The notes under the pieces are model-generated. The model made no database searches. It had not been told where the DNA came from and saw only the letters and a program-made list of their open reading frames with translations. A stretch of DNA of 64,000 nt, from the NCBI GenBank assembly GCA_903838055.1, contig CAILWV010000013.1, positions 1-64,000 of the forward strand, in the 5' to 3' direction. A program made the translations under genes and the position numbers. Source of the DNA: an uncultured Bacteroidota bacterium. Its GTDB lineage: Bacteria > Bacteroidota > Bacteroidia > Flavobacteriales > Flavobacteriaceae. Positions within the stretch are counted from its first letter, which is position 1. Each line of letters begins with the position of its first letter. Positions 6,001 through 21,845 of the stretch are shown here, piece after piece.

Positions 6001-6481
6001 TGAAAATCCAATTCAAGGTTCTTTTATTATAGAAGAATTAACCGATTTAGTAGAGAATGCTGTATTGCTAGAATTTGATCGAATAACAGAGCGAGGTGGT
6101 GTTCTTGGTGCAATGGAAACTATGTACCAACGTTCTAAAATTCAGGAAGAAAGTTTGTATTATGAAACCTTAAAACACACAGGTGAATTCCCAATTATTG
6201 GAGTCAATACTTTCTTAAGTTCTAAAGGTTCTCCAACGGTAATTCCAGCAGAAGTGATTCGCGCTACTGAAGAAGAAAAGCAATATCAAATTGATATGCT
6301 AACCAATTTACAAAAAACTAGCGCAGACAAAGTAGCAGAACATATTGCTATTCTTCAAGATGCAGCTATTAATAATCAAAATATTTTTGAAAAATTAATG
6401 GAAGCCACTAAAGTTTGTTCTTTAGGACAAATAACTAGTGCGTTGTTTGAAGTTGGCGGACAATATAGAAGAAATATGTAG
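3059..6481 (+). CDS. icmF: Fused adenosylcobalamin-dependent acyl-CoA mutase (IcmF type)
   Basis: Likely isobutyryl-CoA/n-butyryl-CoA mutase with its G-protein chaperone in one chain, 1140 aa. Residues about 10-140 form the B12-binding domain (DGHDAA at 23-28). Residues about 195-410 form a MeaB-like GTPase (P-loop GTGGAGKSS at 203-211, NKFD later). The rest is the mutase barrel, with [12 protein letters not shown] near the active site. Substrate-pocket residues are Phe601 (RMFAGEG) and Gln789 (QAQN), where methylmalonyl-CoA mutase has Tyr and Arg; this favours an isobutyryl-type substrate. The protein is about 50 aa longer than the bacterial enzymes I recall because of an insertion before [10 protein letters not shown]. 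It stands alone, followed by a strong terminator. Confidence 0.9.
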
Positions 6482-17528: not shown

Positions 17529-18908
17529 ATGAAAAAAATATACCTATTAGCCCTTGTTCTATTTAGTTCAGTAATCTATTCTCAAACTAAAGGAATTACT
17601 TATCAAGCAGTAATATTAAACCCTGAAGGACAACATATACCAGGCTTTAACAATGAGAGAACTCCACTTGCTAATACAGCAATTTGCTTGCGTTTCAGCA
17701 TTTATAAAGAAGGTGTTTTAGAATACCAAGAAACAAAAAATACCATAACCGATGAGTTTGGAATGGTGAATGTAATAATTGGATCCGGAGTTTATGTTGG
17801 TGGTACTTCTACCACTTTGGCAGGTGTAAATTGGGATGGAAATGCTAAAAACTTAGTGGTTGAAGTAGATTCAAAAGGAATTTGTACCAATTTCATTGAA
17901 ATTAGCAACCAACCTTTTGCCTATGTGCCTTATGCATTTTACGCTGAAAATTCAGGAACACCAGGTCCGCAAGGACCTCAAGGACAACAAGGACCTCAAG
18001 GAGTTTCTGGGCCTCAAGGACCACAAGGACCAGCGGGAACTTCTGGATTGCCAGGAGCAACTGGCCCAGCAGGTCCGCAGGGTGCACAAGGAATAGCTGG
18101 ACCAACTGGAGCAACAGGTCCACAGGGTTTGCAAGGAGTGGTAGGAGCAAATGGGAAAAATACATTAATCAATACTGCAGTTGAACCTTCAGGAATTAAT
18201 TGTGCTAATGGTGGAACTAAAATAGAAGTTGGTTTGGATAGCAATAGTAATGGAATATTGGATAGCACTGAAATAAATACAAATTTGACTAAATATGTTT
18301 GTAATGGTTCAAATAATTCTATAGGCAGCATTGGCAGTCCTAGTTTTTCAATAGTTAATCAATTATACAATAATAATGCTGGATTTATTTCAGCAAGTGG
18401 ATTTTTTAATCCTTCTAACTACCCGTTTCAAATAGTACATACTTATAATAATTTAAATGCAATTGAATTTGAATTCAATTCAATTAGAGATTATGGATAT
18501 AGGTGTTTTTCAGTTGATGTTAATTTAAAATTTTATGATATTAATAATAATTTAGTAAATGTACTTTTTATTGATAAAGAAATATATCAAACTTTTAATT
18601 CAACAAGTGGTTGGACCAATGAAGCACCTATCATAACTACTAGTAATTCAACGAATACAACAATCACATTGAGAGCCAGTTATTACCAAAGTTATAGTTC
18701 ACAGGAAAAGATTTTAGAAAGAAATCTTAAAATTAAAGCTCAAACAAGGGTAGCTAAAGTTGAAGTGATATTTACTACCTCAAATGTCTATGCCCCTACA
18801 ACTACAGAGGCTGGTGTTACGTGCAGTCAAGCTTGGCTTAATGGTCCAAATGACCCCTATGGGGCTTACTTTGGAGATGTTACTTATAGTTTGATTAGCT
18901 TCGAATAA
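17529..18908 (+). CDS. Collagen-like surface protein
   Basis: A 459-aa exported protein. Order of parts: signal peptide (cleavage near VIYSQT); an N-terminal domain (KGITYQAVILNPEG... to FAYVPYAFYAE, about 20-140) common in flavobacterial collagen-like proteins; about 22 Gly-X-Y triplets (about 143-208, rich in GPQ, GPA and GAT); a segment INCANGGTKIEVGLDSNSNGILD that looks like a Ca-binding DUF7151-type motif; and a C-terminal domain of unknown fold. No T9SS domain is evident. Probably a surface or extracellular fibre. Last gene of the operon. Confidence 0.85.
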   Translation: MKKIYLLALVLFSSVIYSQTKGITYQAVILNPEGQHIPGFNNERTPLANTAICLRFSIYKEGVLEYQETKNTITDEFGMVNVIIGSGVYVGGTSTTLAGVNWDGNAKNLVVEVDSKGICTNFIEISNQPFAYVPYAFYAENSGTPGPQGPQGQQGPQGVSGPQGPQGPAGTSGLPGATGPAGPQGAQGIAGPTGATGPQGLQGVVGANGKNTLINTAVEPSGINCANGGTKIEVGLDSNSNGILDSTEINTNLTKYVCNGSNNSIGSIGSPSFSIVNQLYNNNAGFISASGFFNPSNYPFQIVHTYNNLNAIEFEFNSIRDYGYRCFSVDVNLKFYDINNNLVNVLFIDKEIYQTFNSTSGWTNEAPIITTSNSTNTTITLRASYYQSYSSQEKILERNLKIKAQTRVAKVEVIFTTSNVYAPTTTEAGVTCSQAWLNGPNDPYGAYFGDVTYSLISFE

Positions 18909-18942
18909 AATAATATAAAAAAATTAAAAAATTTTTCATTAT

Positions 18943-18999
18943 TTCAGATTTCCAATCCGTTCCGACAAATAAAGTAAGACAAACTTTTACTATATATAC
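18943..18999 (+). repeat. Partial copy of the ~222-bp repeat (tail part)
   Basis: AATCCGTTCCGACAAATAAA followed by GTAAGACAAACTTTTACTAT corresponds to the segment preceding the terminator module in the later copies (19170-19222 and 20320-20370). This starts the 566-bp gene-free stretch after the collagen-like gene, which otherwise consists of the repeats listed next. Confidence 0.6.
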
Positions 19000-19222
19000 A
19001 ATCCACAGAACATAATTATCTGTGGATTTTTTTTATTTTGATAAGAAGAATATATTGTAAATCTAATTTTGCGAAGTTGCGGAAACAACGTTGTTGAATT
19101 ATATTGATTATTAAACCTCAAAGGTTTTTAAAACCTTTGAGGTTTGTGAGTTAGAACCTGGATAGCGCGGATTTTCAATCCGTGCCTACAAAGAAAATAA
19201 GACAAACTTTTGCTATTAATAC
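19000..19222 (+). repeat. ~222-bp repeat, copy R1 (terminator + palindrome + REP-like element)
   Basis: The unit begins with a terminator hairpin (AATCCACAGA / TCTGTGGATT plus T8, 19000-19034). It continues with a conserved stretch containing AACAACGTTGTT and a palindrome with 16-bp perfect arms (AAACCTCAAAGGTTTT, 19113-19145). It ends with a REP-like inverted repeat (GCGGATTTTCAATCCGTGC, 19166-19184) and the lead-in to the next copy. The distance to the next copy is 223 nt. No ORF of its own is convincing. Confidence 0.8.
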
Positions 19223-19374
19223 AATCCACAGAACTTAATTTTCTGTGGGTTTTTTTATTTTGATTAGAAGAATATATTGTAAATCTAATTTCGCGAAGTT
19301 GCGGAAACAACGTTGTTGAATTATATAGATTATTAAACCTCAAAGGTTTTTAAAACCTTTGAGGTTTGTGAGGT
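19223..19374 (+). repeat. ~222-bp repeat, copy R2 (lacks the REP-like end)
   Basis: Same terminator hairpin (19223-19257, one changed base in the right arm), same central stretch and the same perfect palindrome (19335-19367). It stops just after GAGGTTTGTGAG, so the REP-like part is missing before the DUF6934 gene. The remaining 100 nt to that gene hold its promoter (TAGTTTTG at 19449-19456). Confidence 0.8.
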
Positions 19375-19474
19375 AGTAAGTATATTGATAAATCGATTCA
19401 GTGAAAGTTAAAAAAAATTATAAAAGAATATTATCGTAAAAATTTTATTAGTTTTGTTATGAATTCAAAAAATA

Positions 19475-19921
19475 ATGAAATATACAAGATACGAATATTC
19501 AACCGAAGCAGAATTAAATATTTTTGAGTTTGAGAGTGTTGGACCAAAAGGGAAAATAACCAAATTAGTTCAATACACTGAAATGAACATAAAAGATTAT
19601 TATAATTTAGCTTTTGGAGATTTAGACGTAATTACCAGGGAAATAAATGATGGTGTAATAACAAATAATGGCGACGCCATAAAAGTTTTAGCAACTGTAG
19701 TTTCTACTGTTTATGCGTTCACAGGTAAATATCCAGAAGCTTATATTTTCGCAACTGGGAGTAGTGAAGCTAGGACAAGATTATACAGAATGGGTATAAC
19801 AAATAATTTAGAAGAATTAAAAAATGATTTTTATGTATATGGTTTAAGAAATGATGATACATTTGAACCATTTATTGTTGGAGATGATTATTTGGGTTTT
19901 TTAATAACAAGAAAATATTAA
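19475..19921 (+). CDS. DUF6934-like protein
   Basis: A 148-aa soluble protein. The core VLATVVSTVYAFTGKYPEAYIFATGSSEARTRLYRMG, followed by a short alpha-beta C-terminus ending YLGFLITRKY, matches a widespread Bacteroidota family I know as DUF6934; its function is unknown to me. A -7 box (TAGTTTTG, 19449-19456) lies 18 nt upstream. A 52-aa gene follows after 4 nt. The small size, pairing with a tiny partner and location among repeats recall toxin-antitoxin modules, but nothing in the sequence proves it. Confidence 0.65.
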   Translation: MKYTRYEYSTEAELNIFEFESVGPKGKITKLVQYTEMNIKDYYNLAFGDLDVITREINDGVITNNGDAIKVLATVVSTVYAFTGKYPEAYIFATGSSEARTRLYRMGITNNLEELKNDFYVYGLRNDDTFEPFIVGDDYLGFLITRKY

Positions 19922-19925
19922 AATT

Positions 19926-20084
19926 ATGAAAGTTGAAGATTTAAATAAAGCAAAAATACCAGTGGTTAAAATAAATAAGAAACTGGAAGAATTTAAAGGG
20001 AAAATATTGTTTCCTGAAAAACTGGATTTAGCCAATAAAATGCTAGAAAAAGTAAAATTACCAAAAGCAGAAACTCTGAAATAA
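19926..20084 (+). CDS. 52-aa partner of the DUF6934-like gene
   Basis: This gene is too short for the ORF track. ATG at 19926 opens 52 codons (MKVEDLNKAKIPVVKINKKL...) ending in TAA at 20082-20084. The product is Lys-rich and probably helical, with FPEKLDLANKMLEKVKLP near the C-terminus. It begins 4 nt after the stop of the DUF6934-like gene. I recall small ORFs in this position in other Bacteroidota but cannot give a family name. The context is that of an antitoxin- or adaptor-like partner. Confidence 0.6.
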   Translation: MKVEDLNKAKIPVVKINKKLEEFKGKILFPEKLDLANKMLEKVKLPKAETLK

Positions 20085-20148
20085 CCAATATCGGAAAATT
20101 TGTAAACTGAGAAAACAGTTAGCCCGAATAAGCCTATACTACTTATAC

Positions 20149-20370
20149 AATCCACAGAACTTAATTTTTTGTGGATTTTTTTTATTTTGATTAGAAGTAT
20201 ATATTGTAAATCCAATTTCGCGAAGTTGCAGAAACAACGTTATTGAATTATATTGATTATTAAACCTCAAAGGTTTTTAAAACCTTTGAGGTTTGTGAGT
20301 TAGAAACTGGATAGTGTGTATTTTCAATCCGTGCCTACAAATTAAGTAAGATAAACTTATGCTATTATAC
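20149..20370 (+). repeat. ~222-bp repeat, copy R3
   Basis: A full-length copy: terminator (20149-20182), central stretch with two or three base changes (GCAGAAACAACGTTATTG), identical palindrome (20262-20294), and a decayed REP-like end (GTGTATTTTCAATCCGTGCC near 20315). The next terminator module follows after 222 nt, as with R1 and R2. It follows the 52-aa gene by 64 nt and probably terminates that transcript. Confidence 0.8.
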
Positions 20371-20408
20371 AATCCACAGAACTAAATTTTTTGTGGATTT
20401 TTTTTATT
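20371..20408 (+). repeat. ~222-bp repeat, copy R4 (terminator module only)
   Basis: AATCCACAGAAC...TTGTGGATT followed by T8 is kept, but the sequence departs from the family right after the T run. The following 110 nt to the nucleotidyltransferase gene hold its promoter and no ORF. Confidence 0.7.
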
Positions 20409-20496
20409 GAGGCAAGGAGGAAAATACCTGATATCATTATGTCAATAAGTGTTTTAATAAATGAATTGTTGTAAATGCTAAAAAAATCAATTAAAA

Positions 20497-20526
20497 TTGA
20501 CAGCTAATTTATTTTATGTACTTTTG
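20497..20526 (+). promoter_or_regulatory. Predicted promoter of the MNT nucleotidyltransferase gene
   Basis: TTG (20497-20499), 19-nt spacer, TACTTTTG (20519-20526). The transcript would begin near 20531, so the upstream TTG start in the ORF track cannot be used and the ATG at 20545 is the likely start. Confidence 0.65.
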
Positions 20527-20544
20527 ATTAAAATTACTAATTAC

Positions 20545-20844
20545 ATGAGATTAATAGAAAATCATAATAAAGACATCTTGAATTTATGCAAAGCGCATAA
20601 AGTAAAATCTTTATATGCTTTTGGTTCTGTTTTAACAGATAAATTCAATAGCGAAAGTGATGTAGATTTCATTGTAGATTTTGAAAATTTAGATGTTTTA
20701 GATTATGGAGATAATTATTACAATTTAAAGTTTTCACTTGAAAATGTTCTAAAAAGAAGCGTAGATTTATTGGAAGAAAAAGCCATAAAAAATCCTTATT
20801 TTAGAAAAACAATAAATCAAAATAAAGTATTGATATATGGATGA
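20545..20844 (+). CDS. MNT-domain nucleotidyltransferase (MntA-type antitoxin), orphan
   Basis: A 99-aa minimal nucleotidyltransferase: AFGSVLTDKFNSESDVDFIVDF carries the GS-x10-DxD metal/nucleotide motif. In HEPN/MNT toxin-antitoxin pairs this protein neutralises the HEPN RNase, in studied cases by adenylylating it. I start it at ATG 20545 (MRLIENHNKD) because of the promoter. Its TGA stop overlaps the ATG of what was the HEPN gene, but that gene is cut after about a dozen codons, so the protein has no intact partner here. Confidence 0.85.
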   Translation: MRLIENHNKDILNLCKAHKVKSLYAFGSVLTDKFNSESDVDFIVDFENLDVLDYGDNYYNLKFSLENVLKRSVDLLEEKAIKNPYFRKTINQNKVLIYG

Positions 20845-20893
20845 CACTACTAAAACATGGCTTTATGATATTTATTCAATCCACAGAACTTAA
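20837..20893 (+). pseudogene. HEPN toxin gene remnant, truncated by repeat sequence
   Basis: ATG at 20837 overlaps the stop of the MNT gene (ATGGATGA) as in normal MNT-HEPN pairs. The first codons read MDDTTKTWLYDIY, which resembles the start of HEPN (DUF86-like) proteins. From about 20876 the sequence becomes the repeat terminator (TTCAATCCACAGAACTTAA), whose TAA ends the frame after 18 residues. The catalytic R-x4-6-H part of the toxin is therefore absent. Confidence 0.6.
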
Positions 20894-20920
20894 TAATCTG
20901 TAGATTTTTTTATTTTGATT
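20876..20920 (+). repeat. ~222-bp repeat, copy R5 (terminator module)
   Basis: TCAATCCACAGAACTTAATAATCTGTAGATTTTTTTATTTTGATTA continues the family for about 45 nt, with one mismatch in the right stem arm. It fuses directly to the cut HEPN gene and is followed, convergently, by the HigA-like gene. Confidence 0.7.
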
Positions 20921-20942
20921 ATGGGAAGATGTAATGTTTTCT

Positions 20943-21248
20943 TTATAATTTAATTGCGAGTTCTAATTTCCCGCCTAAGCCTAGTTCTACAATTTTTTGT
21001 AAAGTGGAAAATCGTACTTCTTTTACGTTATTTTCTATTCTTGAAATATACGATTTAGTTGTGCCGCTTTTAATAGCAAGTTCTTCTTGAGTTAAGCCTT
21101 TTTCAATTCGGGCTTCATGAATTAAAGCCCCAAGTTTAAATTGTTCGTAGCCTTTTTCTAATTTGTCCCGTTTTTCAGTTCCGGTTTTACCATAAAATTC
21201 CTCTTTGAATTCGTCTAGTGTTTTTAGGTTATTTGTTTTCGTTTTCAT
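20943..21248 (-). CDS. HigA-like XRE antitoxin
   Basis: A 101-aa protein with a C-terminal Cro/CI domain (GALIHEARIEKGLTQEELAIKSGTTKSYISRIENNVKEVRFSTLQKIVE) after a basic 35-aa N-terminus that would contact the toxin. In this arrangement the antitoxin neutralises the upstream toxin and represses the operon. It overlaps the toxin gene by 20 nt and is the second gene, the order typical of HigBA. Confidence 0.85.
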   Translation of the reverse strand: MKTKTNNLKTLDEFKEEFYGKTGTEKRDKLEKGYEQFKLGALIHEARIEKGLTQEELAIKSGTTKSYISRIENNVKEVRFSTLQKIVELGLGGKLELAIKL

Positions 21249-21579
21249 AATCTTTTTTTATTTTTAGGGCTTTGTCAATTTCTTTTTTTGGTGTTTTTTG
21301 TACTTTCTTTTGAAAGCCATTTGCTAAAACAATTAATTTTCCTTTATCGAAAAAACAAAATATTCTAAAAATATCACTTCCTTGTTTTATTCTTATTTCG
21401 TAAAGACCCTCAGTATTTTCAATATGCTTTAAATAGGTCTCAGGTATTTTTTCTAATTGTTCCAATAATTCTAAAGTCCAAGTTATTTTATCTTGAACTT
21501 TTTCACGTTGTTTTACAAAGAATTCTGTAAAATAATCTTTGTAAAAAGTAACGGTTCTTATTTTGATTTCTTTTCCCAA
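21229..21579 (-). CDS. RelE/HigB-family toxin
   Basis: A 116-aa RelE/ParE-superfamily protein of the phage Gp49-like HigB kind: VTFYKDYFTEFFVKQREKVQDKITW, then GLYEIRIKQGSDIFRIFCFFDKGKLIVLANGFQKKVQKTPKKEIDKALKIK. Family members cleave mRNA on the ribosome. It is the first gene of the pair. Its ATG lies only 4 nt from the -7 box, so the mRNA may be leaderless. Confidence 0.87.
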   Translation of the reverse strand: MGKEIKIRTVTFYKDYFTEFFVKQREKVQDKITWTLELLEQLEKIPETYLKHIENTEGLYEIRIKQGSDIFRIFCFFDKGKLIVLANGFQKKVQKTPKKEIDKALKIKKDYENENK

Positions 21580-21583
21580 AACA

Positions 21584-21613
21584 CAAAATTAATAAAGTTG
21601 TACTAAAGTACAA
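21584..21613 (-). promoter_or_regulatory. Promoter of the HigBA-like pair with palindromic operator
   Basis: On the minus strand, TTG (21611-21613), 19-nt spacer, TAATTTTG (21584-21591). A perfect palindrome TTGTAC-N4-GTACAA (21598-21613) covers the -33 element and the spacer, an ideal place for repression by the antitoxin or the complex. The toxin ATG at 21577-21579 is where the transcript should start. Confidence 0.65.
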
Positions 21614-21698
21614 TATTTTTATTTCTTTTAGTTGAAGTTTTTTATTTTTTTATAAAGGTTTTCTTTTGAAATTCTAATTTCACAAAAGACATAACCTT

Positions 21699-21838
21699 TT
21701 TAGCCCTGACAGAAGTGGAAATCCTGGCATTGCGTAAAAGGAGAAGTGCTTTGATATTGCTACGTGCCTCGCAATGCCAGATTGCAACGGATGGCAGGAA
21801 TTACCTTTGCTAAAATGCCCAATGTTTCGCTCCTAAAA
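21699..21838 (+). repeat. Dispersed hairpin repeat family, copy 1
   Basis: TTTAGCCCTGACAGAAGTGG, then stem CTGGCATTGCG (21724-21734) and its perfect complement CGCAATGCCAG (21770-21780), then ATTGCAACGGATGGCAGGAA and a tail ending AATGTTTCGCTCCTAAAAA. Related copies are at 37702, 51811 and 55413. It fills most of the 330-bp gap between the toxin gene and htpG; the remainder holds the toxin promoter and the htpG terminator. Confidence 0.75.
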
Positions 21839-21845
21839 ATGACAA

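What the first reader, a model, noticed from the sequence alone, without database searches (positions are those of the whole stretch)
20545..20920. HEPN toxin gene cut off after about 13 codons at a repeat boundary, leaving an orphan MNT antitoxin
The MNT stop overlaps an ATG reading MDDTTKTWLYDIY, a plausible HEPN start, in the classic overlapping arrangement. The sequence then turns into the repeat terminator, whose TAA closes the frame. The junction at about 20876 coincides with the edge of repeat copy R5, so a repeat-mediated deletion or insertion probably removed the toxin while the antitoxin kept its good promoter. This marks the repeat as active in rearrangement at least once.
Basis: partly seen in the sequence, partly recalled or inferred. 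Interest (0 to 1): 0.66.

Follow-up and report, generated by a model that had tools for sequence, protein, structure and literature searches.

The report
Orphan antitoxin after toxin gene deletion
In a freshwater Flavobacterium the self-poisoning half of a two-gene toxin-antitoxin pair has been cut off after 12 codons while its antidote gene stays intact; relatives show the toxin is lost again and again and the antidote almost never, which is a well-documented instance of an expected kind of gene decay.

Summary
Confirmed. At 20545-20844 lies an intact MntA-like (MNT) gene. A start codon overlapping its stop (20837) opens 12 codons of a HepT-like HEPN gene, which then run into repeat copy R5. 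Most relatives carry the full HEPN at this offset. The orthologous locus in one relative (G026) keeps a full-length HEPN with one nonsense codon, and two other species (G028, L227) share the identical junction, so it is not an assembly error.

The junction is a 5-bp overlap (TATTT, 20869-20873) between HEPN and the left flank of R. Only one side is a repeat: microhomology-type deletion, not repeat-repeat recombination. R does mark a turnover hot spot before htpG, where DUF6934, MNT, HigBA-like and GNAT modules come and go.

New here: among 116 MNT-HEPN loci in 400 genomes of the genus, HEPN alone is broken or gone in 20 (one only a contig end), MNT alone in 1. The orphan and its promoter stay conserved: 12 synonymous against 5 non-synonymous changes between two species carrying the truncation. 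The locus has recombined between species, so timing is uncertain. Known kind (orphan antitoxin of a type VII HepT/MntA pair); a continuing function is possible, unproven.

The parts
20497..20526 (+). Flavobacterium-type promoter of the MNT gene: TTG-N19-TAnnTTTG (TTGACA...TACTTTTG)
   Evidence: 23 such matches in 64 kb on both strands, 4 in the 4 kb scanned, so the match alone is weak; the stretch TTGACAGCTAATTTATTTTATGTACTTTTGATTAAAATTACTAATTACATG is identical in G000, G026, G028 and L227 although L227 diverges just upstream
20545..20844 (+). intact MNT (MntA-like) antitoxin gene, 99 aa, motif GS-x10-D-x-D at residues 27-41
   Evidence: genus hits
20837..20873 (+). 5' stub of the HEPN (HepT-like) toxin gene: 12 codons plus 1 nt, overlapping the MNT stop by 8 nt
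20869..20873 (.). TATTT microhomology at the junction: HEPN GA-TATTT-TGAG / R (G138 copy) AC-TATTT-ATTC
20869..20930 (+). repeat copy R5 (terminator-like hairpin AATCCACAGAACTTAATAATCTGTAGATT + T run), its left arm missing
   Evidence: full-length form in G106
20943..21579 (-). HigA-like (HTH_3) / HigB-like (Gp49) pair directly after R5; in G028, L227 and G106 only about 70-80 bp of the HigA 3' end remain, ending at the place of 21010
18981..20410 (+). repeat copies R1-R4 (unit about 222 bp, with palindrome AAACCTCAAAGGTTTTTAAAACCTTTGAGGTTT in R1-R3) around the DUF6934 module 19475-20084

Best explanation
An MNT-HEPN (MntA-HepT-like, type VII) toxin-antitoxin pair sat in a module-turnover hot spot in front of htpG. 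An illegitimate deletion joined HEPN codon 12 to the left flank of the downstream repeat R5 across a 5-bp TATTT microhomology, removing codons 13-112, the spacer and the left arm of R5. The antitoxin survived because loss of the toxin frees the cell from needing it, whereas loss of the antitoxin with a live toxin would be harmful. The truncated allele then spread by descent and recombination among related pond Flavobacterium species; R5 now stands as the terminator-like element behind the MNT gene. Shown: the junction, its sharing, the ancestral HEPN, the asymmetry of decay, conservation of MNT and promoter. Inferred: deletion rather than insertion, toxicity of the HEPN, and that the MNT is expressed.
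For: HEPN start at the same offset and full-length in most relatives; PF01934 and RX4HXY motif (RNRIIHGY) in the intact gene. Orthologous synteny in G026: collagen-like gene, one R, MNT, full-length HEPN with one nonsense codon, htpG. Identical junction in G028 and L227. G106 has R5 with its complete left arm in front of the same HigA tail and no MNT. Decay asymmetry in the genus: 90 both intact, 20 MNT intact with HEPN broken or absent (one, L162, is a contig end), 1 MNT broken with HEPN intact (L204), 5 other; 19:1 against equal rates per codon p about 7e-5.
Against: MNT sequences of G000 (truncated) and G026 (full-length HEPN) group together against G028/L227 (truncated), bootstrap 83, so the junction and the MNT do not share one simple history. 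No genome was found with a live HEPN followed by the full R5 at this site, so the direct precursor is not seen. The loci are sequence predictions; toxicity in Flavobacterium is not tested.
Confidence: 0.8

Rival explanations
1. The MNT gene with a HEPN stub was pasted next to a pre-existing R5-HigBA module (insertion or module exchange), and the HEPN was lost in that exchange instead of by a simple deletion between HEPN and R5.
For: The site is a turnover hot spot: MNT is absent in G106 and G138 while R5-HigA tail or DUF6934 modules are present. MNT and promoter are far more alike between G000 and G026 (3.0% and 0.0% different) than htpG (11.1%), so the block moves between species.
Against: The joint needs only one breakpoint pair with a 5-bp overlap, as in an ordinary deletion; the HEPN stub and R5 are joined identically in three species.
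Confidence: 0.18
2. The orphan MNT has a selected function of its own (anti-addiction against incoming HEPN toxins, or adenylylation of another target), and toxin loss is a route to it. This concerns what happened after the deletion and is compatible with the best explanation.
For: G000-G028, both with the truncated toxin: 12 synonymous against 5 non-synonymous changes in 99 codons, neutral chance about 1e-4. MNTs with dead HEPN compared with their nearest relatives show pN/pS 0.097 against 0.094 for pairs with live HEPN in one set. Promoter and GSx10DxD motif retained.
Against: In a second, partly different set the same comparison gave 0.158 against 0.096 for MNT, so relaxation is not excluded. 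Recombination may have brought the junction in after the MNTs diverged; then part of the constraint predates toxin loss. Terminal comparisons include time before the toxin died.
Confidence: 0.3
3. Assembly or binning artefact joining two unrelated contigs at a repeat.
For: The joint lies at a repeat, a common place for misassembly.
Against: Same joint in three independently assembled genomes with differing flanks; R5 is followed by the same unique HigA tail in all three.
Confidence: 0.01
4. The 18-aa ORF is a real small gene or leader that never was a HEPN.
For: It is open in G000 and G028.
Against: L227 lacks the stop; the first 12 codons are homologous to HEPN in dozens of genomes.
Confidence: 0.01

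Closest known systems
HepT/MntA type VII toxin-antitoxin system (Shewanella oneidensis SO_3166/SO_3165; PMC7641770)
   Same: Antitoxin-first order with adjacent genes, GSx10DxD in the MNT (residues 27/28/38/39/41, the same numbers as in S. oneidensis MntA), RX4HXY in the HEPN of relatives.
   Different: In this genome the HEPN is only a 12-codon stub, so no working pair; the MNT scores below the curated MntA cut-off of NCBIfam (43 against 60 bits).
Orphan antitoxins left by toxin decay (for example in Klebsiella, PMC7192599)
   Same: Intact antitoxin frame without a partner, relatives with the full pair, proposed anti-addiction role.
   Different: Here the exact junction, the ancestral pair and a genus-wide ratio of toxin to antitoxin loss are available; the family is HEPN-MNT of Flavobacterium.
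PADLOC candidate PDC-S09 (phage-defence candidate family)
   Same: The MNT protein matches these profiles well (1.3e-29).
   Different: A candidate label only; no defence activity was tested, and most members here are half of a pair.

Membership tests
MntA antitoxin (type VII) | nucleotidyltransferase family PF01909/Polbeta | tested here: met
MntA antitoxin (type VII) | GSx10DxD motif | tested here: met
   G27 S28 ... D39 V D41, invariant in alignment A1; motif as in PMC7641770
MntA antitoxin (type VII) | NCBIfam MntA_antitoxin equivalog cut-off | tested here: not met
   43 bits against cut-off 60: a relative, not the equivalog group
MntA antitoxin (type VII) | adjacent HepT gene with RX4HXY | tested here: not met
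   absent in the window and in G028/L227; present in relatives
MntA antitoxin (type VII) | adenylylates its HEPN partner | not testable with these tools
   needs biochemistry
HepT toxin | PF01934 domain with RX4HXY, full length | tested here: not met
   12 of 112 codons remain
Orphan antitoxin from toxin loss | intact antitoxin, toxin remnant, relatives with a full pair | tested here: met
Repeat-mediated (homologous) deletion | same repeat on both sides of the lost segment | tested here: not met
   left side is unique HEPN sequence; only TATTT is shared

The most novel reading that the evidence does not exclude
Solitary MNT antitoxins of Bacteroidota are kept by selection after their HEPN toxins die, as stand-alone adenylyltransferases that immunise the cell against HEPN toxins brought by mobile elements (anti-addiction), and toxin loss with antitoxin retention is a frequent, one-way evolutionary route in this family.
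Probability: 0.3. Interest if true: 0.62.

Novelty: new member of a known kind. Interest (0 to 1): 0.42.

Why it matters
It turns an assumed rule (lose the toxin first) into a countable natural experiment: about 19 toxin-only losses against 1 antitoxin-only loss in one genus is indirect evidence that these uncharacterised HEPN proteins are toxic in their own hosts. The orphan alleles, some conserved with their promoters, also offer ready material to test whether a solitary antitoxin protects against incoming toxin-antitoxin modules.

Tried and rejected
No relative in viral contigs. No solved structure close to the HEPN by sequence; MNT only to 1wot. A claim of clear relaxation, or clear lack of it, in MNTs with dead toxin was dropped because two overlapping sets disagree. 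A vertical dating of the deletion was dropped because the MNT tree and the flanking gene distances conflict. The short match at G000:C60 was not followed. Cross-talk with the second MNT-HEPN pair of the genome (C64) looks unlikely on sequence (23% identity). One protein comparison failed on wrong coordinates and was repeated.

Full report
What is there. The window is part of a Flavobacterium-type genome (G000, contig C13; named relatives of the locus are Flavobacterium and Flavobacteriaceae). At 20545-20844 an intact 99-aa minimal nucleotidyltransferase is encoded. Its residues G27, S28, D39 and D41 make the GSx10DxD motif, which marks MntA antitoxins (PMC7641770). An ATG at 20837 overlaps its stop codon and opens 12 codons, MDDTTKTWLYDI, that match the beginning of a HEPN gene. 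Then the sequence changes to repeat copy R5, whose TAA at 20891-20893 closes an 18-aa frame.

The lost gene. In 200 and then 400 genomes of the genus the MNT has homologues in dozens of genomes. In most, a HEPN gene of 110-116 codons starts at the same offset, 5 nt before the MNT stop. The intact gene of G104 is PF01934 HepT-like at 1.2e-18 and carries RNRIIHGY, the RX4HXY motif of HepT. In G026 the orthologous place (same upstream collagen-like gene, same htpG behind) has MNT followed by a full-length HEPN with one nonsense codon at codon 20, directly followed by htpG and without R5. G028 and L227 (MAGs of other species; htpG 10.8% different from the window) have exactly the same stub-R5 joint.

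The joint. Aligned side by side, HEPN reads TATGATATTT-TGAG in G026 and the R copy of G138 reads AAACTATTT-ATTC; the window reads TATGATATTT-ATTCAATCC. The overlap is TATTT at 20869-20873. In G106 the same R5-HigA tail exists with a complete left arm of R and without MNT. So the event removed HEPN codons 13-112, the spacer and the left arm of R5, most simply by deletion across a 5-bp microhomology. Only one end is a repeat, hence 'repeat-mediated' is too strong. An alternative, that the MNT-stub block was set next to R5 by module exchange, remains possible.

The hot spot. Between the upstream genes and htpG the related genomes carry different modules separated by R copies: DUF6934 (window, G138), MNT with or without HEPN (window, G026, G028, L227), a HigBA-like pair (window; 3' remnant in G028, L227, G106), a GNAT gene (G028, L227, G106). 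The full R unit is rare in the genus: 8 of 400 genomes matched. The MNT block has moved between species: window and G026 differ by 11.1% in htpG but by 3.0% in MNT and 0 of 137 nt in its promoter region, and the MNT is a mosaic (no difference in the first 100 nt, about 4-5% after it). A tree of the 3' part joins G000 and G026 against G028 and L227 (support 83). The deletion can therefore not be dated by simple descent.

Asymmetric decay. Using both the MNT and the HEPN as queries in the same 400 genomes and fetching the loci, 116 distinct loci were classified: 90 with both genes intact, 20 with MNT intact and HEPN broken or missing, 1 with MNT broken and HEPN intact, 5 with both broken or the MNT missing or out of view. 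One of the 20 (L162) is a contig end, and two (window, G028) share one event. The single opposite case (L204, genome G271) comes from a one-contig assembly of 86% completeness and may be a sequencing error (inference). 19 against 1 has p about 7e-5 against equal loss per codon, 18 against 1 about 1e-4. A scan of one genome for each of 84,980 species (80 loci kept) shows the same: many broken or missing HEPNs behind intact MNTs, also in Sediminibacterium, Ferruginibacter, Pedobacter and Symbiothrix; that scan cannot count MNT losses because it was made with the MNT. Where the 3' end of HEPN is gone, mostly only a short stub remains (codon about 12 in L159, 14 in L165, 2 in L166, 5 in L297, about 18 in L254, about 23 in L275, 41 in L284); in L076 a GNAT gene stands in its place.

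Is the orphan still used? The promoter-like stretch TTGACA-N-TACTTTTG (20497-20526) is identical in all four genomes that have the MNT in the hot spot. Between the window and G028, both truncated, the MNT shows 12 synonymous and 5 non-synonymous differences; under neutrality 5 or fewer of 17 has a chance of about 1e-4. This suggests purifying selection after toxin loss, but it holds only if the junction is older than the MNT divergence, which recombination leaves open. Across the family, MNTs beside dead toxins gave pN/pS 0.097 against 0.094 beside live ones in one set, and 0.158 against 0.096 in another (dead HEPNs 0.165 against 0.094). So a kept function is plausible, not shown.

Known or new. 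Orphan antitoxins are common (PMC7192599) and the HEPN-MNT pair is a known type VII system (PMC7641770). The MNT matches the PADLOC candidate family PDC-S09 and lies below the NCBIfam MntA cut-off. This is a new, well-resolved member of a known kind; the genus-wide ratio and the shared microhomology joint are the additional value.

Noticed in passing
window 21698-21805 (+): A Flavo-1 RNA (Rfam RF01705, 66.7 bits, above its gathering score of 42) lies at the right edge of the hot spot, between the HigB-like gene and htpG; the G026 match resumes only at 21834, so the element seems missing there.
   Followed up: partly
window 18900-21840: Module-turnover hot spot in front of htpG, with R repeats between DUF6934, MNT, HigBA-like and GNAT modules in related species.
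   Followed up: partly
L114 5600-5860 (-) and L038 about 6322-6470: In G106, G028 and L227 the HigA-like gene is reduced to the same 3' remnant ending at window position 21010, then a small gene and a GNAT acetyltransferase follow: a second module replaced at a shared joint.
   Followed up: partly
L076 1793-2250: In genome G274 (Flavobacterium franklandianum LB3P56, L257) a GNAT acetyltransferase gene starts at the HEPN start codon position right behind an intact MNT, as if it had replaced the toxin.
   Followed up: no
L159, L165, L166, L297: Independent HEPN 3' losses elsewhere stop within the first 14 codons, close to the MNT stop; intermediate lengths are rare. May reflect deletion up to the selected MNT end.
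   Followed up: partly
G000:C64:24228-24795 (L219): A second, intact MNT-HEPN pair of another subfamily (23% identity to the window MNT) with GSx10DxD and RX4HXY motifs.
   Followed up: partly
window 20408-20660: MNT promoter plus the first 100 nt of MNT are identical between the window and G026 although htpG differs by 11%: recent recombination between species.
   Followed up: partly
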